A stretch of DNA of 64,000 bases. Origin: Romanomermis culicivorax (taxonomy: Eukaryota > Nematoda > Enoplea > Mermithida > Mermithidae). The position numbers were made by a program, and so were the translations under genes. Where the stretch lies: positions 1 to 64,000 of the forward strand of contig CAWUHX010000381.1 in NCBI GenBank assembly GCA_963922205.1, given 5' to 3'. Below the pieces are notes generated by a model. The model saw nothing but the letters and a program-made list of their open reading frames with translations, was not told the DNA's origin and did not search any database. Positions 6,638-55,144 of this stretch are shown here, one piece after another. Within the stretch, counting starts at the first letter, position 1; each line of letters starts with the position of its first letter.

Positions 6638-6678
6638 CGTTAAACACTTGGCATAGCCCTTCTATGTAACATCCTACT

Positions 6679-24679: not shown

Positions 24680-27600
24680 ATGCCACCGTCCGGCTACGAA
24701 AGCACAAGGGTTGTTCAAATAAGCAATGTATCTCCGTCGGCTAGCCGTGAACAACTCTATCATATGTTTGGATATTTCGGCCATATAGACGAAATGAAAG
24801 TTTTTCCTTCAGAGTGGGTTGAGCGTTCACGTTTTTTGCATATTCAATCACCTTTTATATTTTTTATCGATTAATCTGTAATCGCATCCTTTAAATCTCT
24901 TTGAAGCGTAGTTTAAATTATCACCTGACTCTAAACCTTGCATGTTGTTGAAGGGCGAAAGAGTGACAAGAACTCAACCGCAGAATTCATTAGTGCTACC
25001 ACGGGTCGCGCATTTTGGTCAGAAAGACATTTTCGGTTTGCTGATTTATACTTCCTCTAAATTTTGTCTAAATTTCCACGTTTTCGACGACCATTTTCAA
25101 ATTTGTCATTATTACATAACATTTTGAAGCATCCACTAACTTGCTTCCTTAGTCAAAAGCTACACTTCTATATTTTACCAGCCGATTGGTCGCTTAAAAA
25201 TTTCCTGGCCACGTTAGCTGCGTTTAGATTTATGCCTTTCATAATCAACCTTTCAAAAACGCTCGAAAATTGAGATCTTTCCATATTTTTGAATTTAATC
25301 CTACGAAATTTCCAATTCTTGCAGCTTTCACGGTTAAAAACGAAACTTTTTGACACTTTAACATTTGAAACAGAATTTTTTCTTCGTACAATTAGTCATG
25401 TCAGCTGAGGTTGCGCGAAATAGTCCGATTTAAATGTTGATATAAAGTCCTGAGTGTAGTCAAGATTTTTATTTTAGGACGAGTCCACTTTTCGCCAGCG
25501 CGACGTCTAAATTGTGCTTCATAAAATATGACGAGTATGATTCAGTTGACGCCGCTCAGCATATGACGAACACGGTTTTTATCGACCGAGCTCTAGTTTG
25601 TGTGCCAGTTATAGAAAGTTCGTCGTTCTAGCTTTTGTTTTTTCCAAACTATCGTAACTTATTTCGAGTTTACCCTTCTAGACAAAATTCCCGAAGAAGA
25701 GACGGCTATGAAAGTTGGCGCTCCAGCTCTGGGTGGACAACGTCAGCTGCCGCCAAACTTAATGAATCAAATTCAGGTCGTTGGCTCTCAACAAGTGAGG
25801 TTTCGTTTATGTATCCCTTTTTTATTCTGCTTTAAAAATGTTCAACCGTTCAACTTGGAAAAATAGCCTTTCATCGAACGAAATTAACGTTTACCTTTCG
25901 CTTATCTTTTTCGGAAACACCGTTCCTGAGGTAGCAAAATGATTTCCAAGAAACGTTCTCCGAGCTTAGCAAATATTTTCATTAAAATATCTTTTTATGA
26001 AGTTATCCGTCCGAAGATTTCACGCTTCCCTTTTATCGTTATTTAAACGTTTGCTGATGTTTTATTCGTTGAAGCTTATGGTCACAATTGATCCGTCTTT
26101 AGCCGCGCTAGGCTTGCCGCCCTATCCACCATTGCCTGCGAACACGGACGCTGTCAAAATGGAAGAAATACGACGTACGGTGTACGTGGGAAACATCCCA
26201 CGCGATGCCAAACCTAAAGAAATCGTTGATTTTTTCAATGAACGTATCGGCGAAGTCAACTATTTGCGAATGGCTGGTGATGACCACGGCTACGCATACG
26301 TCGAATTTACCAACCAACATTCGGTGCCGACAGCTTTGCAAAATAACGGCATTGAATTAATGAGGGCAAAACTAAGGCAAGCGTTAAATTATCATTCCAA
26401 ATACAGGACTTTGGCGAATTTAAGAGAGCAAGCCATTTTTTTGATGATTAAGGCCAATTGTTCTTTTTTTGTTTTAAATGATAGTTAAACAAATACATAT
26501 TGAGAAAAATTAGCGGATGCGCTAATTTGTATTCCGCTAAAAAACATTGGATTTTTTCCGAATTTTTTGATTCGTTTCGAATGCTTTGTTCGAACTGTTC
26601 TCTTTTATTTCAGGGAATAGTGTCAGGCAGGGCCGTGCACAAGGGGGGGCGGGGGTGTGGCGGCCGCTCCTCATTGAGGCAGCATGCACACAGTATATCC
26701 GCATAAAATAGACATTTTCTGGGGCTATTCAGTAAAAAAACCTAGTCCGCCATCCCCATGAAAAAATCCTGCGCACGGCCCTGGTGTCAGGGATTAATTG
26801 TTTGAAATCCTGCATGCAAATTTAAAATTCATGTGTTTACAGAATTCAACATTCCACCGTCGCCATTATTAAACCGTTGGTCAAAACGATAGATATGGCT
26901 AAAAAGGAAGTCGAAGACGCATTGAAGAACGCTGAGGCCACCAACCCAACGTTAGGGAAAGGAATGGACGTCGACGAAGTTTTGCGGCGTTTTACGTCGT
27001 CATCACCCCTAATTGCCAAAAGTCCGCGAAGCCCAAGTAACAGGATACGAAGCCGAAGCAGGTATGTTTGTCATTGTGAACAACAAAAATCCTCCTTATT
27101 TTTTCATTCATAAATTGAAATTTGAAAACATGTTTACAGGTTCCACTTACATATCGTTATTGACTGTACGGTTAAATATATGTCACCGCTGAATTTTTTC
27201 GTTTTAGATCACGAGGTCGCAGTTCTAGACTACGATCTAGAAGCAGATCGAAATCGAGACATGAGAGCGTTAGGTAAAGAATTAAATAATCATCGTCGAT
27301 CTTATTGACGATTTTTTGTCTTGAGAAATTTTCCTTCCTGGATGGGACTTTTCTCGATTTCTGTTTCAATTAACTTCGGCCTTATACTTGACCAATTTTT
27401 GGATATAGAAACGTTAGCCGCCGACGATCTCGATCCCGTAGCGAAACTAGGTCTTCACGCCGGCGATATCGCTCCAAATCCCGATCACGTGATAGGAGTC
27501 GTAGTCGGTACGCTAAGCGACATTTGTGCTATGAAAAATGAGTTCTCTCCTGATATGTTTAATTTTGAGACGGAGTTGAAGAAATATTGGAAATATTTTT

Positions 27601-36000: not shown

Positions 36001-38582
36001 CGTGATTTATCGCCGGGTGATTGGTTGATCCCTTCCCATCCGGGATTCGGGTTTTGGAGAACGCACATCGTTCGAAATAGGGACGATTTTATCAAAGTAC
36101 CGAAAAACATACCGCTTATTTCAGCAGCTACGATGAGCATTAATCCGTGCACGGCTTACAGGTAATTCTTAAGTTTTCATCCCTGTCGTGAAATTACTAT
36201 GCTGTGACAATAAACAGCTTCAGTTCAAGCGAAAATTTAATCGCATGGTAAGATAAATTTTTCGAAACGACGCTTCCAAATTTGACTACTGAAGTGAGTT
36301 TTGTGAAAATTTCGGATTTATTAACTGAAATTCTACGAAAATATATTTTCAGAATATTACTCGATTACGTTGACTTGAGACCCAACGATGTCGTGGTTCA
36401 GAATGGAGCCAACAGCGGAGTTGGACAATCGGTCATCCAATTGGGGCAAGAAATGAAAATTGTTACCGTCAATATCGTTCGAAATCGACCAAGCATCGAT
36501 AATTTGAAGGCTCGATTAAAGGTAATGGTCACTTAAAATAATGCGTTTTCTCGAACTAAATGTCCTCGATAAGCTTTGATTTTCCTTCGATTGGTCACAT
36601 AAAAGAAATTATTCGAAAATTTATGGAAGTCTGTTCTCTGTAGAAATCTAAAATATGTTCTAAATGATGCTATCCATTATTGCCGTGATATTGTTAATTG
36701 CTTACTTCATATAATTTATATCTTGAAACTGAATGTGAGAATCAAAATCCTAGTTTAAAAATAAATTGTGAAAGATGACCAATGGTACAAAGTTTGGGCG
36801 CAAGGTTTTATTTTTCACTTTTTCTCCAAAGGCCAGCTTCTAGGATCAAAATTTTACAGGCCAATCCGAATTTCAACGAGCCAAAACTAAAATGTTTGTT
36901 AAGGAATGTGGTAGTAAAAAACAGTTTTTTCAACAAATGTATTCAAACACGCTTCGAAATCAGAGTAGAAGTCCATATAACAGATAAAGCATTTTGAATT
37001 GAATACATTTTCGATTGGACACAGAATAATGAGGCTCACATATTAGATCAGTCGTTATTCAATCAACAATATGTATTACAATTTCAGTTAAAATATTAAA
37101 TCTTAAAGTGAACCACCACTTGTTCCTTTGTCTATACTTCGTCTAATTGAATGAAATGCTCAGGTGACAGCGTATGCAACTTTCTGCAGTACTGATAACA
37201 GCTCAGCTTTTACGACAAATGAAACATTGTACATTAGCAAGATTCTACCAGGAACAGGCGAGACCGATTTTGCAACAACCACCGCTTTAGCAATTTCGAA
37301 TCCTGACACCTCTTTGACGCCTGCACACTAATTGTTTTTCGTAAGTCATGCACCTTGTTGATTCGATCGAATGCAATTGTTCAATATAATTTTAGTTAGC
37401 CTAAACTCTTGAAAATCAAAATCAAATCAGTTTCATGTCTTAAATACTGAAAGCTCTCATTGTTGTATAAATTAAGATTTCGTGCCATAGTTTTTTTGTA
37501 CTTTACAGGCTTTTTGGCTTGAGTACAAACAAAAATTTGGGCCTTGTTCGTACCAGTGCAAACAATTTTCTGGTATGAAAATTCAATTTGATATATTAAT
37601 CACACTGTAACCAATGAAGTACAAAAAAATTTTAGACCGTCGTTGGTACCAGTACAAACGGTTCGAGTACAAAAAAAACAAGTGTTTCGTGCTACTCATC
37701 TCCTATGAACAACTACAGCATCACAGAATAATATTTAAAAATATAAGATATATGCAGATAATCTAATTCTACGAAGCGGCGATATTTTTTGAAATTCGAA
37801 GTTGAAAACATCTCTATATTATGCTAAAATTCCTCAATTTTTACAATCCAATTTGGTTTGTGCCGCTAAATTTTTAGGCGCCAATCAGAAGTTTTAGGAG
37901 CCATGGCTCCCAATTGACCTAAAAATAAAACCCTGTTTGGGAGGCGCTTAAAACTGATGGAAAAAACGTGGAAAATTATAATTGAAATTTATTTGAATTT
38001 GTGTCAAGTCATATGTGGTTTTCATATAAGCTGAATTACGTGGCTACATACTTTTTTGCTATTATATGTTTAACGATTCTGGGTGTCAGAGTTTCTGTTG
38101 TGCAGCAATTTTAATTTCTACAAATTTCATTGTGTTTTTAGTCCTTAGGTGCCAATTACGTTGTTACGGAGGAAGAATTCAGAGCTAAGGACGGCAAAAT
38201 GAGCGAGATTTGGTCACGCCACGGTCGCCCCAGATTAGCATTGAACTGCGTAGGTGGCAAATCGACTGTCTACTTAAGTACTTGTCTGGCCGAAAATGGT
38301 AAATTAGTATCATATGGCGGCATGTCCAAACAACCGTTGCAAATACCCGTCGGACCATTGATTTTCAAAAATATCGAGTTACACGGATTTTGGATGACGA
38401 AATGGAAATTGGAGCCGAAAAACGCGACCAAAATGAGCCAAATGGTGGATTTTATGGTCGATTTCGTACAAAAAGGCAAATTAGTCGTACAAGAATACGA
38501 AACTGTTGGTTTGGAAGATTTTGCGAAAGCAATAGATAGGTCGATGCAAGGTTTCAATAAAAAACAAATTTTCGTATTTTAG
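33073..38582 (+). CDS. MECR: Mitochondrial enoyl-[acyl-carrier-protein] reductase (trans-2-enoyl-CoA reductase)
   Basis: Four coding exons in phase: 33073-33286, 35918-36161, 36353-36521, 38142-38582 (355 codons plus stop, near the family's usual length). The protein is a medium-chain dehydrogenase/reductase that uses NADPH for the last reduction step of mitochondrial fatty acid synthesis (family knowledge). Seen here: a short N-terminal stretch fitting a mitochondrial presequence (residues 1-~30), LAAPIHPADINQIQG followed by the conserved tyrosine across the exon 1/2 junction, CGNEGV, GDWLIPSHPG, NPCTAYR, the nucleotide-binding NGANSGVGQSVIQ, and NCVGGKS...YGGMSKQP in the last exon. Introns 1 and 3 contain transposons. 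Nothing in the reading frame looks broken. Confidence 0.93.
34218..34970. mobile_element. hAT-like MITE, keyword CCCGGGTACCCG, in MECR intron 1
   Basis: Inverted ends AGTGCTTCACA / TGTGAAGCACT enclose GGACCCGGGTACCCGG at the left and GACCCGGGTACCCG plus ACCCGGGTACACGGG at the right. The target duplication is unclear. No coding capacity; the 74- and 65-codon minus-strand ORFs overlap the ends. Confidence 0.7.
36801..37935 (-). mobile_element. GGAGCCATGGCTCC-keyword hAT-like element, copy 3, in MECR intron 3
   Basis: Inverted relative to copies 1 and 2. Ends are CAAGGTTTTATTTTTCAC and TAAAAATAAAACCCTG. Flanks TTTGGGCG (36793-36800) and TTTGGGAG (37936-37943) form an 8-bp duplication with one mismatch. 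GGAGCCATGGCTCC is at about 37899. The composite interior of the other copies is mostly missing. A second MITE (37486-37684) is inserted inside. Confidence 0.85.
37486..37684. mobile_element. 199-bp MITE, keyword GTAC, nested in copy 3
   Basis: Starts CATAGTTTTTTTGTAC and ends GTACAAAAAAAACAAGTG, with a perfect 8-bp duplication TTTCGTGC (37478-37485, 37685-37692). GAGTACAAAC and GTACCAGTACAAAC words occur near both ends. Same size and layout as the MITE at 17256-17455. Confidence 0.9.
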
Positions 38583-40654: not shown

Positions 40655-42041
40655 TGTCACATTAAACAGAGTGGGAGCCATGTCACATTAACTGAATTGG
40701 TGATCAGTCACATTGATGCGAAACCCCATACCATATTCCATAGGGAATATGGCCATGACACTGTAGGTGACATGCTGTGACCCCATGGGGTGGCCCCGTT
40801 ATATTTTTCTGTTTCGGGAACCTAACCCAGCTGGTACTACCACAGGTAAATCTATGGTGTACCTCGGCCTTGTCCTAGGGTTATGCTGTAGAGTAATGGA
40901 CAACGCGGCCGGGTCAGGGGTGCCAATCCCTAGTCCTCATTCACCAGAATGGGGGACAGTGCCATTCGAAGAATGGCGTACTGTAGGGGACCCGATTGTT
41001 AACCTAAATCCCCTTATTGGCCCTGACCTTAAGGGTCTGAGGGCTTTCTTAACTGAGGGTACTTCCGAGGAAAACTAGCTTAGGGGAGACTCCCACAAAT
41101 ATACCATCAACACTAATAACCCCTGAGAAGACTCACTAATCCTCTTCTTAACCTACTCGGCGCTGGGCGACAGGTTCGGGGTCAAACGGGGTCCTACGGA
41201 CAGCGATGTACGGGAACGGGAATCCCGGGGATTTGGCCTAGGGGTAATGCGGCTGCTGATCGGCAAGCGGCGGTAATACGATTAATGGCGGCGGGGACGG
41301 GTTCCTACGGTCGGGTTACTGTAGCGGTAACGTATAAGGAGGCCAGAGGCAGAAATATGCAAATTTTATTCGGGGAGTGGCGAACGCAGTTGACAATATA
41401 AAAAATATAATAAGAGTCGACGACGGCAAACGTGGATGCAAGGCTAAAAGAACAAACACCAGTTAGGCCCAATAATGAGTGACAAAAAGACGAAACATGC
41501 CCTTTTAAAGGGCCCCATAAACTACAGTATGCCTTGGGCGGAGTTAACACTCCCCCAAGCTAACTTCTGCAGCGGAAATCATTGCAGAAGATGCCTATGG
41601 TCACATAGACATTTTCCAGTTCTCAAGGTTAAGCATTGGGGCGAGTTTTCACTCTCCATGCTTAACATAGGAACGTCACTAGTGAGAATTTCAAACTAGT
41701 CCTTTCACATTGCGAAACGTCGCTAGTTTTTACTGATAAGAGGTGCACGTTGTGCTCCAATTACAGTGATGAGCTCGGAGAGCTTATCTCTAACAGAAAT
41801 TCTTGACTAGCGGGCACATACCGTAGTCTAGGTGTATAACAAAATAATAATTCGAAACAGAAATAAAATGTGCGCAGGAACAAAACATGAAAAGTACACA
41901 CATAAATTGCATGTAAAAAATTATAAAAACAAAAACGCAAAATTGATGCAAATTACTGTAACACAAAACGTAACCAAAAACATAACGAAAAATTGTGATG
42001 TGAATCACGTGACGTTTGACGAAATCCGTCGGCACGTGACA
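40655..42041 (-). mobile_element. Solo LTR, same family as the full element
   Basis: A 1387-bp LTR in minus orientation is bounded by TGTCAC/GTGACA and flanked by a 4-bp duplication GAAT (40651-40654, 42042-42045). It is clearly similar along its length to the LTRs at 43640 and 53735. It carries the reverse of the TATA-like CCCTTTTAAAGGG (about 41500-41512) and of AATAAA (41365-41370). Solo LTRs arise by recombination between the two LTRs of an insertion. Confidence 0.92.
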
Positions 42042-43639: not shown

Positions 43640-45002
43640 TGTCACGTGCCGACGGATATCGTCGAACGTCACATGATTCACATCACAATTTTCCATTATG
43701 TTTTTTGTTATGTTTTGTGTTACAGTAATTTACATCAATTTTGCGTTTCGTTTTTATACTTTTTACATGCAATTTATGTGTGTACTTTTATGTTTATTTC
43801 TGTTGCTTTTGCGCACTTTTATTTCCGTTTCGATTTATTATTTTCAATCGCACACGTAGACTACGGTATGTACCCGCTAGTCAAGAATTTCCTTTAGAGA
43901 TAAGCTCTCTGAGCTCATCGCTGTAATTGGAGCACAACGTGCACTTCTTATCAGTAAAAACTAGTGACGTTTCGCAACGTGAAACGACTAGTTGGAAATT
44001 CTCACTAGTGACATTCCTATGTTAAGCATGGAGAGTGAAAACTCGCCCCAATGCTTAACGTTGTGAACTGGAAAATGTCTATGTGATCATAGGCATCTTC
44101 TGCAATGATTTCCGCTGCAGAAGTTAGCTTAGGGGAGTGTCAACTCCGCCCAAGGCATACTCTAGTTTATGGAGCCCTTTAAAAGGGCATGTTTTGTCTT
44201 TTTGTCACTCATTTTTGGGCCTAACTGGTTTTTTGTCATTTTAGCCTTAGTTCGCGTCCGCCGTCATCAATTTTATAATATTTTGTTGTTGTCAACTGCG
44301 CCTCGCCGTACGTCGAATAAATTTACATATCTTCGCCCCGGCCTACATACCCACATCGCCTACAGTAACCCGACCGTAGGAACCCATCGCCTGCCGATCA
44401 GCAGCCGCCGAACCCCACCCCGAATCCCACGGATTCCCGTTCCCGTACATTGCCGTCCGTAGGACCCCGTCTAACCCCGAACACGTCGCCCAGCGCCGAG
44501 TAATTTGAGAAGAGGTGTCGTAAGTCTTCGGGGTTATTGTTGTTGAGGGTATATTTGTGGGAGTCTCCCCTAAGCTAGTTTTCCCCCGGAAGGACCCTTA
44601 ATTAAGAAAGCCCTCAGACCCTTAAGGTCAGGGCCAATAAGGGGATTTAGGTTAACAATTGGGTCCCCTACAGTACACCATTCTTCAAATGGCACCGTCC
44701 CCCATTCCGGTAAAGGAGGACTAGGGATTGGCACCCCCGACCCGGCCACGTTGTCCATTACTCTATAGCATTAACCGTAGGACAAGGCCGAGGTACACCA
44801 TAGGTTTACCTGTGGTAGTACCAGCTGGGTTGGGTTCCCGAAACAAAGAACATTTATGGAGCCACCCCACGGGGTCACAGCATGTCACCTACAGTGTCAT
44901 GACCATATTACCTATGGGATATGGTATGGGTTTTTCCCGTCAATGTGACTGATCACCCACTTCATTTAATGTGACATGGCTCCACCTTTGTTTAATGTGA
45001 CA
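43640..45002 (+). repeat. 5' LTR
   Basis: 1363 bp, TGTCAC...TTTAATGTGACA. Includes a palindromic TATA-like CCCTTTAAAAGGG (about 44176-44188) and AATAAA at 44316-44321, giving a plausible U3-R-U5 layout. Confidence 0.92.
44176..44188 (+). promoter_or_regulatory. TATA-like palindrome in 5' LTR
   Basis: CCCTTTAAAAGGG is present at the equivalent place in all three LTR copies, about 130 nt before AATAAA. The promoter role is inferred from position. Confidence 0.5.
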
Positions 45003-45020
45003 TGGCGAGGCTGGAAAATC
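45003..45020 (+). promoter_or_regulatory. Primer-binding-site candidate
   Basis: TGGCGAGGCTGG starts directly after the 5' LTR, as expected for pairing with the CCA end of a tRNA primer. The tRNA species was not identified. Confidence 0.6.
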
Positions 45021-46248
45021 GACCTTAAGTCTGACTTCACAGTCCTTGGGAACGAACCTTTTACCCTTTTGAGTAAGTTACCTCTTTCAATTAGGTAAAT
45101 TTTCGATTTGAGTAGGGGAAACCTCCATCAGATCATGAGAATCGCCATTTGAGTGGAGAAACCCCTCTCAGGTCTGCTGATTCGCATTCCGAGTGGGATC
45201 ACTGACCCTTAGGATGAAATTTTTGCCCTCATGTAAGTGGATACGCCCGTAAGAAGGTACACTGCCCCTTAGGTTGGAATAGGCCCTTATATTCGAGCTT
45301 AACGCCAACTCAGATAGCACCGCATTTGAGTAAAATTTAATTACTGTAGGTCGGGATTTGCCCCACATGTGATTAATTTAATGATTCTTGCGCGTAAATT
45401 AATGCCTTATGAGTATAGTAACTCCCGTAAGCTTTAATTCATCCCCTGGTGTCGATTTTTCTACAGCTTTAATCCCCAAGAGTCATAAAATCCCCAGAGC
45501 TGAGTAAATAGAGTATTCTGCCTTAATCTCCTCTGAGCTGTCATTTTTCTTTTCTTTCCATTTTTCCTCTTTAATTTGAGCCTCCATTCACTGCGTGTGA
45601 TCGGATAAGTTACTTTAGCGCCGTAGGCCTTTTGGTTACAGTACGACTGCGATTTGCACATACTCTAACTACAGTACACCTGGGTACGGGTACTTGAGTA
45701 TCACAGCCCATGAGGTTTTCACAGCCCCTGAGAGTTTCGGGATCTCCGATCACGAGGTACAGTACACCTTCCACCCTTGATTCTGGACGTCAAGTGTGGT
45801 CGTGATTTGTTATCTGTGTCCAGTATGTGTGTCAACACATTCTTTCAAACTTTTTCTTATCTTCACTGAGCACTTGCCAAGTTGCTCATTTTTCCGGCCA
45901 AATAAGCCAAAATTTTACTGTTGACACATATAACACCATACTTGGCAGATCACATTGCATATCTTTCAGGTCTCAAATTTTATTTTATTTACTTTACTTT
46001 TTATTTTTCTCGGCCTTCTATGCGTATCCTGTGACCCAATTATAATAATTTTTCACCCAATAAATTTTCTTATCTCAAAAATCAACTCAAATAAAAACTA
46101 ATAACCCTTTTTTTTTCTTTCCCTTTCTCTTTTTTCTAAACAAACAAATTAAAATTTATCCTTTCCCTACCAAAAACAAACAAAACATTCTCTTTTCCAC
46201 TTCTATTCAAATTTATCAAAAACAAAACTTTTTCTTTAACGGTCACAC
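45003..46248 (+). other. Untranslated leader with ~40-nt periodic repeat
   Basis: No plus-strand coding region is seen over 1.2 kb. From 45063 to about 45270 a degenerate unit recurs with GAGT cores at 45071, 45110, 45151, 45191 and a variant near 45234. The last 200 nt before 46249 are rich in pyrimidine and A tracts. Confidence 0.6.
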
Positions 46249-46734
46249 ATGCGTCCTAGTTGGCAACCGTTCAGTAGGTCATTTCTTATTATTTTTCCAC
46301 TACTGCACGGTCTTCTCTTCTTCTTTTCTTTTTTTGCCGACGGAACTATTCGCGCCACCCCGGTGGACAAGATCCTGTTGGACGGTGAACCGTCATCGCC
46401 TGCAGTGGACGCCATCCGCCGCGCTGTGGAGGAGGCCAGTCACAACGTGGGGCCCACAGCAGTTGTTGCCACATCACCGACAACAACGACGATGGGAGCC
46501 CAAACACTGGTGGCAATTGCGCAACAGCAACCGGTCGCCAACGCCTTTGGAGAACCATTGCCCACCGTTAACAAGGTGGTCAACGTCATGGAGGCGTCGC
46601 CATTCCCGATGGCAACCGTCCCGCGGTCCCCAAAGATTGGGGTTCTTCGAGAAGTCCACCCGTGCGGAGGCTTGGTCATCGACTTCCCCGGAGAGGAGCC
46701 CATATCGTCGGACAAGGATGATGTCGAAGAATGA
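46249..46734 (+). CDS. Small ORF of unknown function in LTR element
   Basis: 161 codons. A strongly hydrophobic N-terminal segment (residues ~10-30) is followed by an Ala/Thr/Val/Pro-rich soluble region and an acidic C-terminus ending DKDDVEE. It lies where gag is expected but has no capsid-like or zinc-knuckle motif. The hydrophobic start may be a product of the T-rich leader, with translation beginning at a later methionine. The overlapping 191-codon ORF in another frame (Trp/Arg-rich) looks like a shadow. Not recognised. Confidence 0.45.
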   Translation: MRPSWQPFSRSFLIIFPLLHGLLFFFSFFADGTIRATPVDKILLDGEPSSPAVDAIRRAVEEASHNVGPTAVVATSPTTTTMGAQTLVAIAQQQPVANAFGEPLPTVNKVVNVMEASPFPMATVPRSPKIGVLREVHPCGGLVIDFPGEEPISSDKDDVEE

Positions 46735-46772
46735 AGCCGCCCGACGAGTGAAAACTAAGTTTTGGTGTAAAT

Positions 46773-48530
46773 TTGCAAACACCGTTTGTAAATATTTTGT
46801 TTGTAATAAACTGGGCCTTCGTAACACTACTGTTCTTAGGAATGAGCTCTGCAACACATGCTACTCAATACCAATTTTGTGGTCTTTCAAGAAGCGGTCA
46901 TCCACTTGAGTTACCTCAAAAAGTTGAATGCAAACCACCAAAATCTTCGTGGAGTCCACAACGCATGAATGTTACAGTATATGTACCTATTTCTGATCCA
47001 ATCACGACTAAAGCATGGAAATGGAATCGGAAGGTATGCACGAATACTGGTTTCTTCGGAATCAGAAGGTATGCACGAATACTGGTTTCTTCGGATCTAG
47101 GGGCATTACTGCAGACATCATAACCACTCAGCACCTCGCGCCTGTGGCATGTACACTGGCACATCCCACAAAGGTGTTTGGTTTACAAAAGCTCGTGGAA
47201 ATACGTCCTGGCTTTTATAGCACTAACCAAACACTGGAGGTGATGTACTCATGGTGCTGCAATGACGTCTGCAAGACAGTGACTAACCTCTTCATCGAGG
47301 AGGGACAGGTCGCTTCGTGGGATGGCACTACAGCTCTAAGTACCTTAGGAGATGTAGGTGGATGCAGTCCGACTGCAGGTCAATGCACTACTCTTGACGG
47401 GGTAATTGCCTGCTACAAACTTTACAGCACAGTGTCATTATCGCCCACAGGGTAATTACACTGCGTCTGTATCAGGGAACCACATCATCGTGGATGATTT
47501 GCAGGTTGCCCTGAAGATCCCGGGAAACTCTCGTATGTTTGGGCTGTGTCCTGACCTCCGGTCGAATACAGTAAGAATGGATCAGGGTCTTCTTCTACGC
47601 ATCCACGGAAGATTTAACTTGACCCACAGGTTGTTCGGATTGGCAAAGGATTCTGTCCCTGACCCCGTCAATGCCAAACTGAACTATCTGGCTCAGCAGA
47701 TCAAGGAGTCGGAAATTAACAATTTTCGATTCATGTGGCTTGAGTTGTGCTCTCACGCTCAACGCTACCTTGATCTGACTTGGCAGTTGCTTTGTACCCT
47801 CGGAGCCTGGGCATTCCTTCAAAGGAATGATCTGACGGCAGAATTTACGGGTGAAGCACTGACGATATGGCCATGTCAAAAGGTCAACGCCGTCTACCAT
47901 TCGTACCGAGTGGGGGACACCTGTTACAAGTATCTACCCGTACAGGTTGGCGGTACCATTTATTTTGCCACCCCCGGTGGCCCGGATCTCACTAAATTCA
48001 GCCCGAAGGTGCCGTGTGACCACCACTTCACAGGGATTTTCTGAAATTGCTCTGGCTGGTTTACTGAGTCTGGCACGGTCCATGTGAGCCACATTCCGCT
48101 TGAGCTGTTCTGGAAACAGTGCTTCAACGTCACTCACTTTGACGCTCCTGCGCTTTTCCATGATCAGTTGACAATGACCCCTTCAAGTTTTGCTTTCTTT
48201 AAACAGTACGTTTACAAGACTGAGCAGATTGAAGCAGTCTTAAACCGGTTGGTAAACTTTACTGCTGGTCTATCCCTCCAACCCGATACTATCTATCAAG
48301 CCGTTGCAGGGGTGGGAACTGACATCAAATCCTCACTGGAAGGTGTTGGTCTGGCAGCAAACCACGTGATTACTGGCCAACAGCACAACCTCATGCAGGG
48401 CTTACAGTCTCTCTTGAGTGGACCAGTGCAGTTGATCTTTAACACACTTATTGCCCTGACAGTGCTGGCCGGTACAGGATTTCTCATCTACGCTGGGATC
48501 TCCTATTACCTCAGTTACTGCCTGCGGAAA
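46773..48530 (+). pseudogene. Envelope/fusion-glycoprotein-like region, broken
   Basis: Begins with a signal-peptide-like hydrophobic run (residues ~7-30 of the 46773 ORF). It continues as a Cys-rich ectodomain with several N-x-S/T sequons and a GFFG motif, and ends in a ~30-residue membrane segment (residues ~115-147 of the 48084 ORF) followed by a basic RKR. Layout fits a viral-type membrane glycoprotein; the family is not assigned. The frame changes near 47025-47094 (35-bp tandem duplication) and near 47440-47455, and a TGA interrupts at 48042-48044. The membrane end is in frame with the protease region downstream, which is unusual. Confidence 0.7.
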
Positions 48531-50426
48531 AGACAGGTTGGGTTTGTTAGCCAATACTCTCCGTTGAACCTCCTCCGGAAAGTTCAATGTTGGGTAGGTT
48601 TTCATTACGTACAGAATGATGTGCCAACTCAGTTAGACAGGATCACTCCGTGTTTTGTCATACTAGTTGACCACAAGGAAACCCCTGCTTTCCTTGATAC
48701 TGGTTGCCCACGGACTATCATTAGTCAACGCCTTCACAAAGCGCTGATCAAAGAAAGTCTGAAGGCGGCGATGGCCTTCCAGCAACATCACGACTTTAAC
48801 CCATTGATGAGTATCAATGGGAAAGCTGTTCATACCCTCCTTTCAGGACTGTATGAGATAATGTTGCCTGGAACCCGTCAGCCACACACAGGAGTAGATA
48901 TACATCTCCATGTGTGTAAGACCACGTCTCCTTTCTGGGCACCGGTCGATCTGATTCTTGGATTGGACTTCCTAGAACAATTCCAGAATATTACGTTTGA
49001 TTACCAACAACATGTCTGTCGATTGAATGCAGTAGAATTACCCCTTCTCTTGACCACGGCTGAGATTGATCAGGTCGATCCCTGGTGGGAGAACACACGT
49101 TCACTATCAAGGGCCTCATATCGGTCCGGGTCCCGATCAAGATCAAGGACTTCATCCATTTCTCGGCCACCCTCGCGAGCCTCCTCAGTTGCCTCATCAC
49201 GTGGGTCGACCAGAGGAAGCCGGACTTCTAGACAGGCTAGTGGTTATTTTATGGCCAGGTCAGGATCAACTTGTCCTAGGCCACCGCCTGGAAGTTCTCC
49301 AGTTACACTAGAGAAAGGCCGGTTTCGCGAGCCTAGTGATTCTGATGCACCTGCATCCGCTGTACTAGAGGTGCCACCACTCTCGGATGCTGAGGTCGAA
49401 TCACTGGGAGCTACTCAGAGCTCCGGAGAACGATCAGATCATGTACTCACTGTTCAGGTCAATCCTACTCCTAGGACCAACCCAGAAACCTCGGTTGGTT
49501 ATGCTCTGGTAGGACTACTCCGACGCACTGGTTTGCCAATACCAAGGCGAACCAATGCGCCAGAGTCGAGCTTTGATGACTCTGTGCCTGACCCAGGTCA
49601 TGTAGTATCAGCTTTCTACCCCACTGAAATGAGGACCCCTCATATCAAGGTTCTACTGAACAATTGGGTAGAGGCCAAAGCTCTAATTGATACAGGGGCA
49701 GTTTTCTCGCTCTTGGATCACAAGTTGGCGGTTCAGTTACCCGACTTGACACTCACAGAGACTAGGGCTCGTCCCATAGCAGCTAATAGGTCTCCGATCT
49801 TACTGCTGGGCGCTGCTTATGTCACGGTGACAGTGGCTGATGTTTCTGAATGGATTCAGGTCCAAATTCAGGAAAATTGTTCGGCTGAACCAGTCTTGGG
49901 GACGAACTTCCTCAGACGATTCAATTGTGTCAGTTTGAACTGGGAGAAATCCTTTCTTCAGTTCAAGGAACTTCGAGTTCCGTGTGGGGGCCTCATCCTC
50001 AATCCACCTTCTGCTCGTGGGGCACTACCCTTGCAGGAGTTGATTGTCCTTGAGCCTCGCCCGCTAACACAATTCACTGCACCTGTGCCTGCATTGTATG
50101 CAACTGTACCCGAAGTGGCTTTCTTTCCTAAGCCTCTTTTGGGACAGCAACGCAGTGTGTACTTCGCTGGTACTGTGAGTACGGTGACCAATGGTCACAT
50201 ACCCCTACAGGTAGTCAACTCGAGTACACACTCAGTGGTTCTCTACCCCTACACGACCATCGGTCATGTGCAGATGCATTCTGATTCCCCACAGGGATCG
50301 GCGGTCAAGTCTGATACCATTCTTGACCATAAGTGGGTTGAAGCAAATGCTGTGATATCCTCAGATATCTCCACACAGGATAAAGCAGCGCTGCTCGACC
50401 TGCTGGTCGCATTTACTGACCTCTAG
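48084..50426 (+). CDS. Membrane segment fused to two retropepsin domains (LTR element)
   Basis: 780 codons. Residues 1-~110 are the juxtamembrane part of the glycoprotein-like region, ~115-147 a membrane span. A first aspartic protease follows (LDTGCPRTIIS, DTG at 205-207; ILGLDFLEQF near 293). A Ser/Arg-rich basic linker lies at ~350-392. A second protease domain follows (ALIDTGAVFSLLD, DTG at ~536; VLGTNFL near 602). The ORF ends at an in-frame TAG (50424-50426) just before RT. In Metaviridae one protease processes Gag-Pol; a second DTG domain may be catalytic, a dimer partner or a relic. The natural start is probably upstream, because a stop at 48042 splits the preceding region. Confidence 0.75.
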   Translation: MSHIPLELFWKQCFNVTHFDAPALFHDQLTMTPSSFAFFKQYVYKTEQIEAVLNRLVNFTAGLSLQPDTIYQAVAGVGTDIKSSLEGVGLAANHVITGQQHNLMQGLQSLLSGPVQLIFNTLIALTVLAGTGFLIYAGISYYLSYCLRKRQVGFVSQYSPLNLLRKVQCWVGFHYVQNDVPTQLDRITPCFVILVDHKETPAFLDTGCPRTIISQRLHKALIKESLKAAMAFQQHHDFNPLMSINGKAVHTLLSGLYEIMLPGTRQPHTGVDIHLHVCKTTSPFWAPVDLILGLDFLEQFQNITFDYQQHVCRLNAVELPLLLTTAEIDQVDPWWENTRSLSRASYRSGSRSRSRTSSISRPPSRASSVASSRGSTRGSRTSRQASGYFMARSGSTCPRPPPGSSPVTLEKGRFREPSDSDAPASAVLEVPPLSDAEVESLGATQSSGERSDHVLTVQVNPTPRTNPETSVGYALVGLLRRTGLPIPRRTNAPESSFDDSVPDPGHVVSAFYPTEMRTPHIKVLLNNWVEAKALIDTGAVFSLLDHKLAVQLPDLTLTETRARPIAANRSPILLLGAAYVTVTVADVSEWIQVQIQENCSAEPVLGTNFLRRFNCVSLNWEKSFLQFKELRVPCGGLILNPPSARGALPLQELIVLEPRPLTQFTAPVPALYATVPEVAFFPKPLLGQQRSVYFAGTVSTVTNGHIPLQVVNSSTHSVVLYPYTTIGHVQMHSDSPQGSAVKSDTILDHKWVEANAVISSDISTQDKAALLDLLVAFTDL

Positions 50427-51065
50427 GCTATTGATGGAAAGGACAGAGGTTCCACTGACCTCGTGCACCACGAGATCAGCAGGGGTGATGCTCGCCCAGT
50501 CCGCTGTTTCCCTTACCGCACCGCGCCCAAGGAAAAGGATCTCATCATACAAGGAGTCAAAGCGCTCCTGGAAAAAGGCATTATTCGCCCTAGTACCTCA
50601 CCCTGGGCTACTAACACCCTCCTGGTTCACAAGAAAAATGGGTCACACCGGATGTGTGTTGATTTTCGTGGTCTTAACGAAGTTACGAAAAATGATGTCT
50701 ATCCTCTCCCACGGATTGATGAAATCCTGGACACACTCAAGGGTATGAAATACTTTACTACCCTTGATCAGGCTAATGCCTACTGGTCTATACCTATTGC
50801 CGAGGCAGACAAAGAGAAAATGGCGTTTAATACGCCTATTGGACTTTACGAGTTCAACTATCTGCCTTTTGGTCTTTGCAATGCCCCTGGGACGTTTCAA
50901 CGCCTCATGGATCTGCTTCTTACAGGATTGCAGTGGGGCACTGCATTGACCTATCTCGATGACATCTTGGGGTTCGGGAACTCTCACACCCAGATGCTTG
51001 AGCGCCTGATGGATGTGTTTACGCGTCTCTGTCAGGGTGGAAAAGTGCAAGTTCTCGCACTCTGA
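50427..51065 (+). pseudogene. Reverse transcriptase N-terminal part (LTR element)
   Basis: Same frame as the preceding protease ORF, separated from it only by the TAG. Motifs: RPSTSPWATNTLLVHKK, MCVDFRGLN, FTTLDQANAYW, LPFGLCNAPGTFQ and the catalytic TYLDDILGF, all typical of Ty3/Gypsy RT. The frame is lost near 51030-51040, shortly after the catalytic box. The remainder of RT continues in another frame. Confidence 0.88.
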
Positions 51066-51954
51066 GGTAGAATATCTCGGGTACCGCATCTCACAGAAGG
51101 GTCTCGAGCCGGGTAAAGTCAAATTGGCCGCCGTCCAGGCTATACCCATTCCACAAAACGCTAAAGACATCAAGTCTTTTCTTGGTCTTGTGTCTTACTA
51201 TAGGCGTTTCATCCCTGGTTGCGCTCGGCTCAGCGAGCCGCTGACCAAGCTCTTACGGAAGGAAGTTACCTTCCAGTGGTCAAAACCTCAGCAAGTGGCG
51301 TTCAACGAACTCCGAAGGCTGTTGCTGAACCCTCCTGTCCTACGCCATCCGGACTTTACGAAATCCTTCATACTTCAAACTGATGCAAGTATTTCAGGGA
51401 TAGGAGCAGTTCTGAGCCAGTTAGACGAAAATGGATACGACCATCCTGTTGCGTACGCCAGTCGAGGGTTAACAGCAGCTGAGAAGAACTACACTATTAC
51501 GGAGTTAGAGACTCTCGCTGTTGTCCATTTCGTTAAGCACTTTCGGCCTTACCTCTTTCAACATGAGGTCGTCGTCCAGACCGATCACACTGCTGTAAAG
51601 GTGGTGTTAGAGAAACCGAACCCTTCGTCCGGGATAGCTCGGTGGGGCCTCGTGCTAGCTGAATTCAAACTGACTATTCGGCCGCAAAAAGGTCGGTCTA
51701 ATGGTAATGCCGACGCATTATCACGCCTTCCCGATCCCAATTCCCTTGCCGGGGAGAGTATTGACGATATTCCCCTATACAGACCTGAGGGAGAAATTAT
51801 GATGATATCGGATGGTGCGCAGCACCTGGCGAATTCATCCGATAGGACCACCAATGGTGTGAGCACCTGGCCAGGTCTGAGTCTTATGCAGAGATATCAC
51901 AGGATGCGCAGCACCATGACCTTCTCGCAACTCAGTTTGAGGATCCGGAACTAG
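51013..51954 (+). pseudogene. RT thumb and RNase H (LTR element)
   Basis: Starts in the shifted frame: EKCKFSHSEVEYLGY and SFLGLVSYYRRFIP (RT thumb/connection), then RNase H with QTDAS, TELETLAVV, TDHTAV and DALSRLP. Only the last ~25 codons read out of frame. The sequence linking to integrase resumes in another frame near 51880. Enzymatic role: degradation of RNA in RNA-DNA hybrids during reverse transcription. Confidence 0.88.
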
Positions 51955-52076
51955 CCTCCATTCTTAGGTCACTAAAACCCTACGGTAATCAGAATGATGT
52001 TAATGGCTACCACCTGCTGGATAACATCCTTCAGAAGTGGACAGGCGAGTCCAACAAGATTGTTGTCCCTCGATCA

Positions 52077-53270
52077 ATGGTTACTACCATTATTGAGGCT
52101 CACCACAACGACATTCTTGCTGGACACTTTGGTGCAAAACATACCGCGAGGCTTATAGCCCGTCGGTACCACTGGCCTTCCCTCAGTGCGGATGTCAAGT
52201 CCTTTTGTCAGCGGTGTGATCTTTGCCAATGGAATAAACCCGCAAGACAAAAGACCCGTGCAACTCTGAAACCGATCTCCATTACGGGTCCGTTTCACCA
52301 AGTCGGTGTCGACTGTATGGGACCAATGACCACTAGTGAAAATGGAAACCAATTTATTGTAGTCTTTATAGACTACTTTACTAAATGGGTCGAAGCTTTC
52401 GCTACTCCGGACATAACTGCGCAGACCATAGCTCGACTCTTTGTTACACAAATTGTCTGCAGACATGGGGCACTGCAGATTCTTCAGTCTGATCGTGGTA
52501 CTGATTTCACGTCCAAACTGATGACTGAAATCACTGCCATTTGTTCAACTAAGAAAATCCACTCCACCGCTTATCATCCTATGACAAATGGAGAAGTGGA
52601 AAGAGCTAATCAAACGCTAGCTACACAGCTACGTATGTATGTCCACCACGGTCATACTGATTGGGATGAACACCTGCCGTACTCTGTGTTCGCTGTCAAC
52701 ATTAGCATGAATGAGTCCACAGGGTATTCACCCTTTGAGCTCATGTATGGGCGTACACCCATGCTACCTGTTGATGCAGCGCTCTCCTTCAACCCTCCAG
52801 CCCATATCATAGATGTTTCTACTTATGATATGGAGGTCAAACGGCATTTTACAAATGCCTTGACCTTGATCCAGAGCAGAATTGAGAGATCACAGGCGGC
52901 TTATGCTAGGTCCTACGACCGCATGGCTCGAGATGTCTCTTACAAAGTTGGGGATCAGGTGCTCAAACTGCGCACCACCAGAAAACGTGGTCTAACGCCC
53001 AAACTATTGCCCATTTATGATGGACCCTACTTTGTCACGAATGTGGCATATCCCAATGTCACTATTCGACTTGAGACTGACCAAGAAGATACTGTGCATG
53101 TCAATCAGCTTAGACGCTACGTGTCATCTACTCAGCCTACAGAAGAAGAGGAGATACCTTCCACTTCACAGGTCATCGAGACGGCACCTTTGTTGATCCC
53201 GTCAACAAATAGAGATTTTACACAAGATCTCATTGACCCACATCTTGATGCAGAGGTCTCGGACCCGTAA
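52077..53270 (+). CDS. Integrase with GPY/F-type C-terminus (LTR element)
   Basis: 397 codons. N-terminal HHCC zinc module (HHND...H, CQRCDLC). Core with VDCMGPM, SDRGTDF and GEVERANQ giving the D,D-35-E triad. The C-terminal YDGPYFVTN and VNQLRRYV are the GPY/F module. The real coding start is upstream of 52077 in the same frame, from about 51880. The integrase would insert the cDNA into host DNA. No chromodomain is recognisable. Confidence 0.88.
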   Translation: MVTTIIEAHHNDILAGHFGAKHTARLIARRYHWPSLSADVKSFCQRCDLCQWNKPARQKTRATLKPISITGPFHQVGVDCMGPMTTSENGNQFIVVFIDYFTKWVEAFATPDITAQTIARLFVTQIVCRHGALQILQSDRGTDFTSKLMTEITAICSTKKIHSTAYHPMTNGEVERANQTLATQLRMYVHHGHTDWDEHLPYSVFAVNISMNESTGYSPFELMYGRTPMLPVDAALSFNPPAHIIDVSTYDMEVKRHFTNALTLIQSRIERSQAAYARSYDRMARDVSYKVGDQVLKLRTTRKRGLTPKLLPIYDGPYFVTNVAYPNVTIRLETDQEDTVHVNQLRRYVSSTQPTEEEEIPSTSQVIETAPLLIPSTNRDFTQDLIDPHLDAEVSDP

Positions 53271-53734
53271 TCAAGTAGCTCTTCTCTTCTTTACTTATGG
53301 ATGGGGTCATCCTTTTTCGAAGGACCGCCGTGCCCCTCACAGGATACCCACTCCTGTTCCATGCTGGAATAGCAGTGTAAAGAAGAGAATGAGCAGCGAT
53401 CAATGCATCTAAAACTAGGGTATTGCTTCACATTACAGGCGCATCCGTGCGAAAGCCTATACCTCGCCTTTAAAATTTTTCTTTTAGTCTCGTTTCAGAT
53501 TTTACAAATCAACCGACAATTGGCAACTTCACCGAAGGGATCAAATGACGTCAGCAACTTCACGCATCTCCAATCGACATCAGCAGCTTCACGCAACATT
53601 GACATAATTCCACAAACCAGAACGCACCGGAAAACCGCTGGACCATCGACCGCTCGCCGTCACCATCACTTGAACATTTGACCCCCCGACAGACACGCAC
53701 AAGGACGAGGACGCCCTTTTTCGAAGGACCGCCG
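53271..53734 (+). other. 3' internal region with a 22-bp direct repeat
   Basis: CCTTTTTCGAAGGACCGCCG plus TG occurs at 53311-53332 and again at 53715-53736, where its last two bases are the start of the 3' LTR. The 400 bp between contain a 92-codon ORF with no domain. A classical polypurine tract is not obvious before the LTR. Confidence 0.6.
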
Positions 53735-55144
53735 TGTCACGTGCCGACAGATTTCGTCGAACGTCACGTGATTCACATCACACTTTTCCATTATGTTTTT
53801 CGTTATGTTTTGTGTTACAGTAATTTACATCAATTTTGCGTTTCGTTTTTATACTTTTTACATGCAATTTATGTGTGTACTTTTTATGTTTATTTCTGTT
53901 GCTTTCGCGCACTTTTATTTCCGTTTCGATTTATTATTTTCAATCACACACGTAGACTACGGTATGTACCCGCTAGTCAAGAATTTCCGTTAGAGATAAG
54001 CTCTCCGAGCTCATCGCTGTAATTAGAGCACAACGTGCACTTCTTATCAGTAAAAACTAGCGACGTTTTGCAACGTGAAACGACTAGTTGGAAATTCTCA
54101 CTAGTGACGTTCCTATGTTAAGCATGGAGAGTGAAAACTCGCCCCAATGCTTAACGTTGTGAACTGGAAAATGTCTATGTGATCATAGGCATCTTCTGCA
54201 ACGATTTCGGCTGCAGAAGTTAGCTTGGGGGAGTGTTAACTCCGCCCAAGGCATACTGTAGTTTATGGAGCCCTTTAAAAGGGCATGTTTCTTCTTTTTG
54301 TCACTCATTATTGGGCCTAACTGGTTCTTCGTGTTCAGCTTTTCGTCCGCATCCGCCGTCGTCGATATTTTATTATATTTTATTATTGTCAACTGCGTTT
54401 CGCCACACGTCGAATAAATTAGCGTATTCGTACCCCGACCTACACATACCCGTCACCCTACAGTAACCCGACCATAGGAACCCGTCCCCGTTTATTGTAG
54501 AGCCCCGTCGCCCCTCACCGAGGAAACGTCCGTTATCACCGCCTGCCAACCAGCAGCTGCGGAACCCCATGCCGAATCGCTCGGATTCCCGTTCCCGTAC
54601 ATCGCCGTCCGTAGGACCCCAATTTGACCCCTAACCCGTCGCCCAGCGCCGAGTAATTTGAGAAGAGGTGTCATAAGTCTTCTCAGGGGTTATTAGTATT
54701 GAGGGTATATTTGTGGGAGTCTCCCCTAAGCTAGTTTTCCCCTGGAAGGACCCTCAGTTAAGAAAGCCCTCAGAGGGCCAATAAGGGGATTTAGGTTAAC
54801 AATCGGGTCCCCTACAATATGCCATTCCGCGAATGGCACCATCCCCCATTCCGGTGAATAAGGACTAGGGATTGGCACCCCCGACCCGGCCGCGTTGTCC
54901 ATTATTCTACAGCATTAACCCTAGGACAAGGCTGAGGTACACCATAGGTTTACCTGTGGTAGTACCAGCTGGGTTGGGTTCCCGAAACAGAAACACATAC
55001 TGGAGCCACCCCATGGGGTCACAGCATGTCACCTACCGTGTCATGGCCATGTTTCCTATGGGATGTGGTACGGGTTTCCCCGTCAATGTGACTGATCACA
55101 CATCTGTTTAATGTGACATGGCTCCACTTCTGTTTAATGTGACA
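53735..55144 (+). repeat. 3' LTR
   Basis: 1410 bp with the same ends as the 5' LTR. TATA-like CCCTTTAAAAGGG at about 54271-54283, AATAAA at 54413-54418. Contains an insertion of a few tens of bases relative to the 5' LTR near 54490-54530. Confidence 0.92.

What the first reader, a model, noticed from the sequence alone, without database searches (positions are those of the whole stretch)
46773..50426. Glycoprotein-like region upstream of, and continuous with, the protease of a Gypsy-type element
In the common env-bearing Metaviridae (errantivirus type) env follows integrase. Here a signal-peptide-like start, a Cys-rich sequon-bearing ectodomain and a ~30-residue membrane span precede two DTG proteases in the same frame as the membrane span, and no gag is recognisable. 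If confirmed in intact copies, this is either an unusual genome order or a membrane-anchored polyprotein. The copy is degenerate, so the fusion could also be a rearrangement of this copy.
Basis: partly seen in the sequence, partly recalled or inferred. Interest (0 to 1): 0.88.

Follow-up and report, generated by a model that had tools for sequence, protein, structure and literature searches.

The report
Gypsy element carrying glycoprotein before protease
A retrovirus-like genome parasite in this host carries an RNA-virus-type surface protein between its capsid and its protease, an order unlike that of the relatives I compared it with, and the sister copies examined keep that order and show signs of natural selection on it.

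Summary
The window copy is an old, broken Gypsy-type element between LTRs (43640-45002, 53735-55144). Its GP matches Pfam Monjiviricetes_fusion (46.5 bits, cutoff 27). One open frame runs from the rear of GP into two DTG proteases. This copy lacks gag because about 4.66 kb is deleted at 46330. At least 119 places in the genome carry the GP-PR1 unit. GP precedes PR1 in 30 of 30 loci; a Ty3-type capsid lies in front in 14 of 14 upstream stretches; only ~460 bp separate integrase from the LTR in 14 of 14. Order: gag - GP - PR1 - linker - PR2 - RT - RH - IN. GP, its joint with PR1, and PR1 are under purifying selection (pN/pS 0.09-0.34). A 190-codon ORF in another frame overlaps the gag-GP boundary, so how gag and GP connect is open. 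Most likely a capsid-glycoprotein-protease-polymerase polyprotein with an internal signal; splicing or frameshifting is the main rival. New variant of a known kind; only two literature searches were answered.

The parts
43640..45002 (+). 5' LTR (TGTCAC...GTGACA)
   Evidence: 118 of 1348 ungapped columns differ from the 3' LTR (8.75%)
45003..46332 (+). remnant of the leader, starting with a TGGCGAGGCTGG primer-binding-like site; no frame stands out by codon signal in 45300-46200
46330..46333 (+). joint of a deletion of about 4.66 kb (rest of leader, gag, start of ORF1) relative to sister copy L045
   Evidence: window matches L045 up to 1658 and again from 6317
46333..46734 (+). rear part of ORF1, an overlapping ORF in a frame other than GP; its apparent start in this copy (46249) lies in leader sequence brought in by the deletion
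46752..48641 (+). glycoprotein, read here in four open pieces (46752-47120, 47012-47452, 47406-48041, 48045-48641); broken in this copy by stops and frame changes
   Evidence: unbroken in sister L006
46779..46853 (+). hydrophobic signal-like stretch, ending in the SSATHA motif region
47667..48035 (+). match to Pfam PF24664 Monjiviricetes_fusion, profile 311-433 of 653
48411..48506 (+). membrane span, 32 residues
48642..49055 (+). PR1, retropepsin-like domain (DTG about 48696; LGLDFL)
49056..49622 (+). linker between the proteases, Arg/Ser-rich in its front part
   Evidence: pN/pS 0.25 for its counterpart in sisters
49623..50423 (+). PR2 (DTG about 49689) and the stretch up to RT
50427..51062 (+). 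reverse transcriptase, front part
   Evidence: best solved relatives: 4ol8 reverse transcriptase/RNase H, then the Ty3 polyprotein 7q5b
51010..51951 (+). rear of RT and RNase H
   Evidence: best: Ty3 polyprotein 7q5b
51846..53267 (+). integrase; GPY motif seen by eye (motif described in passages of PMC2774666)
   Evidence: best: Ty3 polyprotein 7q5b
53735..55144 (+). 3' LTR
40655..42041 (-). solo LTR of the same family, with 4-bp target duplication ATTC

Best explanation
A multicopy Ty3/Gypsy-type element that has taken up a Monjiviricetes-type (chuvirus-like) fusion glycoprotein and carries it between gag and the proteases: LTR - leader - gag (Ty3-type capsid) - [overlapping ORF1] - GP - PR1 - linker - PR2 - RT - RNase H - integrase - LTR. 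SHOWN: the order in the copies examined, the shared GP-PR1 frame, selection on gag capsid, GP, PR1, linker and PR2, copies whose compared LTR parts are identical. INFERRED: gag, GP and pol are made as one polyprotein. The hydrophobic stretch around SSATHA acts as an internal signal sequence, the ectodomain enters the ER, the single span stops transfer, and PR1-PR2-RT-RH-IN stay in the cytosol at the membrane, where the proteases free them. GP would thereby also act as carrier of Pol to the budding site. It works like polyproteins that begin capsid, internal signal, glycoprotein, then enzymes (flaviviruses come to mind, recalled); no kinship with them is claimed. Confidence: order and selection about 0.95; membrane-tethered GP-PR-Pol product about 0.6; uninterrupted Gag-GP-Pol chain about 0.4.
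For: 119 places carry GPd+PR1, the other copies at 91-97% identity; 96 of 119 have no stop inside the match and 13 of 119 lie in a frame of exactly 3018 codons (counted by eye in the table; 119 of 2978 candidates were scored, so a lower bound). GP before PR1 in 30 of 30 loci, the 30 best-scoring of the 119. Capsid PF19259 34.6 bits, cutoff 29.1, in L045; the same capsid in 14 of 14 upstream stretches. IN, about 460 bp, then LTR in 14 of 14. GP of sister L006: PF24664 61 bits. pN/pS in the GP frame over 28 of 30 loci: GP 0.26, 0.34, 0.19, 0.16, tail 0.12, PR1 0.09, linker 0.25, PR2 and bridge 0.23; the two wrong frames 0.68-2.57 over the same regions; capsid region 0.05 and 0.13 over 14 copies. 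DTG kept in PR1 and PR2 28 of 28; no stop between span and PR1 DTG and no net frame change across the rear of GP and PR1 in 28 of 28; 15 of 16 Cys invariant where not gapped; 9 of 9 sequons kept in at least 26 of 28. LTR pair parts identical in 3 of 14 copies; one full pair 8 of 1433 with a 4-bp duplication. Codon usage trained on PR2-IN favours the GP frame in 12 of 12 overlapping windows starting 47250-48900.
Against: In the ORF1 overlap before GP the GP frame is not the constrained one: ORF1-frame pN/pS 0.70, 0.48, 0.10, 0.42 against 0.80, 0.83, 3.07, 0.67 in 14 copies, and 0.47 against 0.96 in 28 loci for its tail, so an uninterrupted Gag-GP chain may be a by-product of an overlapping gene. 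The GP frame has no ATG between the gag part and the hydrophobic stretch of GP. The first GP windows and the linker windows do not favour the GP frame clearly, and the 49050 window favours another. The rear of gag is less constrained, 0.20-0.53. PF24664 covers only residues 298-446 of 627. PR1 alone stays below Pfam cutoffs (20.2 against 28.2), and PR2 too when scored without PR1 (23.3). L005 lacks PR2 and L023 has a diverged pol. No RNA or protein data. Both structure models were unusable (pLDDT 34.6 and 39.1). 12 of the 14 copies with fetched flanks were picked for their 3018-codon frame.
Confidence: 0.62

Rival explanations
1. Separate products by splicing or frameshifting. Full-length RNA gives Gag; ORF1 and GP-Pol come from spliced RNA or a shift back at the end of ORF1; GP may be spliced out for Gag-Pol. 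The 3018-codon frame is then partly chance across the ORF1 overlap.
For: The ORF1 frame is the better constrained one in most of the overlap. An acceptor-like TTTCTTGCTTACAG (its AG at 1907-1908 counted from L045:4218) lies before an ORF1 ATG at 1932; 6 of 14 copies have an ORF1-frame stop upstream of that ATG, so ORF1 probably starts there. A leader of about 3.9 kb leaves room for a donor.
Against: The acceptor is judged by eye; no RNA was seen. The GP frame is open over the overlap in 13 of 14 copies, though these are young copies. The GP-PR1 joint is one constrained frame in any case.
Confidence: 0.33
2. Rearrangement or assembly artefact of the window copy.
For: The full copy has no matching target duplication (CTGT against GTTG) and strongly diverged LTRs, and a 4.66-kb deletion.
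Against: The same GP-PR1 order in 29 of 29 sister loci at other places, with selection.
Confidence: 0.02
3. The upstream region is a Gag or other structural protein mistaken for a glycoprotein.
For: It sits directly before the protease, where Gag ends in ordinary Gypsy elements (recalled).
Against: PF24664 at 46.5 and 61 bits against cutoff 27, and a second glycoprotein family (BDV_G, below its cutoff) on the same stretch; the capsid is a different, upstream domain; signal-like stretch, one membrane span, kept Cys and sequons.
Confidence: 0.03

Closest known systems
Anakin (BEL/Pao element of mosquitoes with a chuvirus glycoprotein; PMC7642597, passages and section 16 seen)
   Same: LTR retroelement that captured a chuvirus-type glycoprotein and spread it
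   Different: Pol of the BEL/Pao group; the envelope-like proteins of Roo, Tas and Cer-7 are described there as downstream of the polyprotein; here Ty3-type pol and GP before PR
Errantivirus (order as stated in the finding and recalled)
   Same: Ty3/Gypsy pol with an envelope gene
   Different: env after IN and of another glycoprotein kind (recalled; PMC12440569 says likely from baculovirus); here nothing after IN in 14 of 14 and GP before PR1
Ty3/Gypsy elements in general (Ty3 polyprotein 7q5b)
   Same: Ty3-type capsid, PR-RT-RH-IN order, best solved relative for RH and IN and second for RT
   Different: extra PR1, GP, linker, ORF1
Endogenous Jingchuvirales glycoproteins (PMC10084718, passages and Results seen)
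   Same: glycoprotein of that order in animal genomes, one event reported in Nematoda
   Different: the paper states no clear evidence of capture by Gypsy or Copia elements; here GP is an integral, selected part of one
Troyka (PMC12440569, parts 1-3 of 5 read)
   Same: LTR elements first filed under Gypsy
   Different: CG..CG ends, 3-bp duplication, no envelope; here TG..CA ends, 4-bp duplication

Membership tests
Metaviridae / Ty3-Gypsy | PR-RT-RH-IN order with IN last | tested here: met
Metaviridae / Ty3-Gypsy | RT, RH, IN closest to Ty3 | tested here: met
   solved structures only: 7q5b (Ty3 polyprotein) first for RH and IN, second for RT after 4ol8
Metaviridae / Ty3-Gypsy | Ty3-type capsid in Gag | tested here: met
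   PF19259 34.6 against 29.1 in sister L045; deleted in the window copy
Metaviridae / Ty3-Gypsy | LTR ends TG..CA with short target duplication | tested here: met
   ATTC at the solo LTR and ATAG at one full copy; not found at the window's full copy; not tested at other copies, whose 5' flanks were not fetched
Metaviridae / Ty3-Gypsy | placement in an RT tree | not tested
   no reference set at hand
Errantivirus | env after IN | tested here: not met
   14 of 14, 30 of 30
Anakin | BEL/Pao-type pol | tested here: not met
   and the capsid point to Ty3; no BEL/Pao reference was compared
Anakin | chuvirus-type glycoprotein | tested here: met
   at the level of PF24664 only; no tree within Monjiviricetes
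Troyka | CG..CG ends, 3-bp duplication | tested here: not met
Monjiviricetes_fusion glycoprotein PF24664 | score above Pfam's cutoff | tested here: met
   46.5 and 61 bits against 27
Monjiviricetes_fusion glycoprotein PF24664 | fold of a viral fusion protein | tested here: inconclusive
   one piece, pLDDT 34.6; no fold search was made
Retropepsin (PR1) | DTG and the rear LGLDFL-type motif in line | tested here: met
Retropepsin (PR1) | Pfam cutoff of a protease family | tested here: not met
   20.2 against 28.2 (PF13975)

The most novel reading that the evidence does not exclude
A Gypsy-type endogenous virus that makes its whole proteome as one membrane-threaded chain, capsid - internal signal - glycoprotein - protease - protease - polymerase - integrase, so that Pol reaches the particle through the glycoprotein's membrane anchor and not through a Gag-Pol fusion, with a second, GP-linked protease that frees the tail.
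Probability: 0.4. Interest if true: 0.93.

Novelty: new variant of a known kind. Interest (0 to 1): 0.87.

Why it matters
In the envelope-bearing retroelements I compared it with (Errantivirus, recalled; the BEL/Pao elements of PMC7642597), env lies behind pol. A family with GP between gag and protease, in one selected frame with the proteases and with copies whose compared LTR parts are identical, breaks that pattern and suggests another way to bring Pol and glycoprotein together. It would also be a further capture of a Monjiviricetes-type glycoprotein by an LTR element besides Anakin, this time by a Gypsy element, for which a 2023 survey (PMC10084718) reported no clear evidence.

Tried and rejected
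Rejected: (1) ORF1 as a small secreted gene coupled to GP by a stop-start overlap: sister copies show that its front in the window is leader joined by the deletion, and that GP is in the frame of gag. (2) gag absent from the family: refuted. (3) An extra gene after IN as the reason for the 3018-codon frame: none in 14 of 14. (4) Troyka: ends differ. Led nowhere: single-sequence structure models; six scans of viral contigs and one of genome contigs without relatives; protein database search, 1649 candidates, no hit; NCBIfam, one weak hit far below cutoff; solved structures for GP pieces, ORF1 and Gag, nothing of weight. One search compared PR1 with a wrongly framed PR2 and is void; one search replaces it. 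The L049 LTR row is unreliable, its LTR end being misplaced. Script 118 stopped with an error. Comparison ORF 46064-46906 overlaps the ORF1 stretch and is not a pure control.

Literature: only two searches answered. Searches failed, 38 was malformed, 85 met the cap. So absence from print is not established. Malik et al. 2000 was not reached (one search failed, not held).
Full report
What was checked. The region holds an LTR element: LTRs at 43640-45002 and 53735-55144, differing at 118 of 1348 ungapped columns. Between them Pfam finds RT, RNase H and integrase. Among solved structures the Ty3 polyprotein 7q5b is the best match for RNase H and integrase and the second for RT. Upstream, one frame of 793 codons (48045-50426) runs from the rear of a glycoprotein through a 32-residue membrane span into two DTG protease domains; the longest frame in 200 simulated sequences was 269 codons.

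Glycoprotein. The piece 47406-48041 matches PF24664 Monjiviricetes_fusion with 46.5 bits (cutoff 27) and, below cutoff, the Borna virus G family on the same stretch. The unbroken counterpart in sister copy L006 reaches 61 bits. The match covers residues 298-446 of 627; the other parts are assigned only by position, signal-like stretch, cysteines, sequons, membrane span and selection. Ten comparison ORFs matched no family at its cutoff.

Two proteases. PR1 and PR2 align with score 48 against a shuffle mean of 25.9, sd 4.3, 0 of 500 shuffles reaching it. PR1 aligns with the Ddi1 retropepsin-like domain at both its DTG and its rear GLD motif; E 0.067 for the whole, neither stretch being significant alone. 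PR2 matches PF13975; above cutoff only when the whole 793-codon frame is scored (35.9 against 28.2), below it when scored without PR1 (23.3). PR1 alone scores 20.2. Both triads are DTG in 28 of 28 aligned copies.

Sister copies. The window lies in a 359-Mb assembly of 595 contigs. The unit GPd+PR1 is found at 119 places including the window, identity 91-97% for the others; 96 of 119 have no stop inside the match and 13 of 119 lie in a frame of exactly 3018 codons (counted by eye in that table; 119 of 2978 candidates were scored). In all 30 loci drawn, the 30 best-scoring, GP stands before PR1. Exceptions further down: L005 lacks PR2, and L023 passes into a diverged pol (39-50% identity) after the linker. 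Flanks were fetched for 14 copies, 12 of them picked for their 3018-codon frame. In 14 of 14 downstream stretches integrase is followed by about 460 bp and the LTR. In the 14 upstream stretches a leader is followed by an open frame (broken up in L058) whose front part is a Ty3-type capsid (PF19259, 34.6 bits, cutoff 29.1, in L045; the same capsid in 14 of 14, in two pieces in L058).

Why the window copy shows no gag. Its DNA matches sister L045 up to position 1658 and again from 6317: about 4.66 kb are missing at 46330-46333. The small ORF that I first took for a gene with its own signal peptide (46249-46734) is partly a product of this joint. The copy also lacks a matching target duplication (CTGT against GTTG), while the solo LTR at 40655-42041 has ATTC on both sides and the copy on contig C431 has ATAG. 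Its LTRs are nearly as far apart as either is from the solo LTR (8.75% against 10.7-10.8%), so its two ends may come from different insertions.

Age and selection. Three of 14 sister copies show no difference between the compared parts of their LTRs (0 of 254, 0 of 289, 0 of 332), and one full pair differs at 8 of 1433 (the L049 row is unreliable). Counting variants among copies, the GP frame has pN/pS 0.05 and 0.13 in the capsid region and 0.20-0.53 in the rear of gag (14 copies), 0.16-0.34 in GP, 0.12 in its tail, 0.09 in PR1, 0.25 in the linker and 0.23 in PR2 with the stretch behind it (28 of 30 loci). Over the same GP-to-PR2 regions the two wrong frames give 0.68-2.57. Variants were counted once each against one reference row, so these are rough ratios; shared ancestry is not modelled. 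Between the membrane span and the PR1 DTG there is no stop in 28 of 28, and no net frame change across the rear of GP and PR1. In the window itself, codon usage trained on PR2-IN favours the GP frame in 12 of 12 overlapping windows from 47250 to 48900, but not in the first GP windows nor clearly in the linker, where the 49050 window favours another frame.

The open point. Between gag and GP lies a stretch in which another frame, ORF1, is mostly the better constrained one (0.70, 0.48, 0.10, 0.42 against 0.80, 0.83, 3.07, 0.67 in 14 copies; 0.47 against 0.96 for its tail in 28 loci). ORF1 has an ATG 24 bases after the AG of an acceptor-like sequence, and 6 of 14 copies carry an ORF1-frame stop before that ATG. 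The GP frame is open there in 13 of 14 copies but has no ATG between the gag part and the hydrophobic stretch of GP. So GP must be reached by reading on from gag, by a shift from ORF1, or by splicing. I rate a GP-PR-Pol product tethered in the membrane at about 0.6 and an uninterrupted Gag-GP-Pol chain at about 0.4.

How it would work (inference). Gag is made first; the hydrophobic stretch around SSATHA acts as an internal signal; the ectodomain enters the ER; the span at 48411-48506 anchors it; the proteases, the linker and Pol remain on the cytosolic side, where a capsid would assemble. PR1, directly behind the tail, has the lowest pN/pS of the parts measured on the 28 loci. Cutting sites are unknown.

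Compared with what is known. Anakin is a BEL/Pao element with a chuvirus glycoprotein (PMC7642597, passages and section 16 seen). A survey of Jingchuvirales glycoproteins in genomes states no clear evidence of capture by Gypsy or Copia elements (PMC10084718, passages and Results seen). Llorens et al. 2009 speak of gag-pol-env as the ancient structure of Ty3/Gypsy retroviruses (PMC2774666, passages seen). Troyka has other ends and no envelope (PMC12440569, parts 1-3 of 5 read). Only two literature searches were answered, so I do not claim that the order is unpublished. I file it as a Ty3/Gypsy-type element of unusual layout, not as an errantivirus and not as Anakin.

Noticed in passing
L023 2755-4010: After the linker this copy passes into a pol only 39-50% identical to the window's, so a second, related Gypsy family probably exists in the genome and exchanges parts with this one.
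   Followed up: no
L045 321-4217: This sister copy has a leader of about 3.9 kb between LTR and the gag frame, with three plus-strand frames of 105-138 codons; the other 13 upstream stretches are similar in length where the 5' LTR end was found.
   Followed up: partly
window 53311-53332 and 53715-53736: A 22-bp direct repeat whose second copy ends at the 3' LTR start, perhaps linked to plus-strand priming.
   Followed up: no
window 40655-42041: Solo LTR of the same family on the minus strand with 4-bp duplication ATTC.
   Followed up: yes
L036 3911-5341: A second LTR at 80% identity to the window's 3' LTR lies near this copy, a hint of older subfamilies.
   Followed up: no
window 6670-10047: Open 1125-codon LINE-type frame with endonuclease and RT domains.
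   Followed up: partly
window 25970-26485 and 38142-38579: Likely host exons with an RRM domain and a zinc-binding dehydrogenase domain; host not identified.
   Followed up: no
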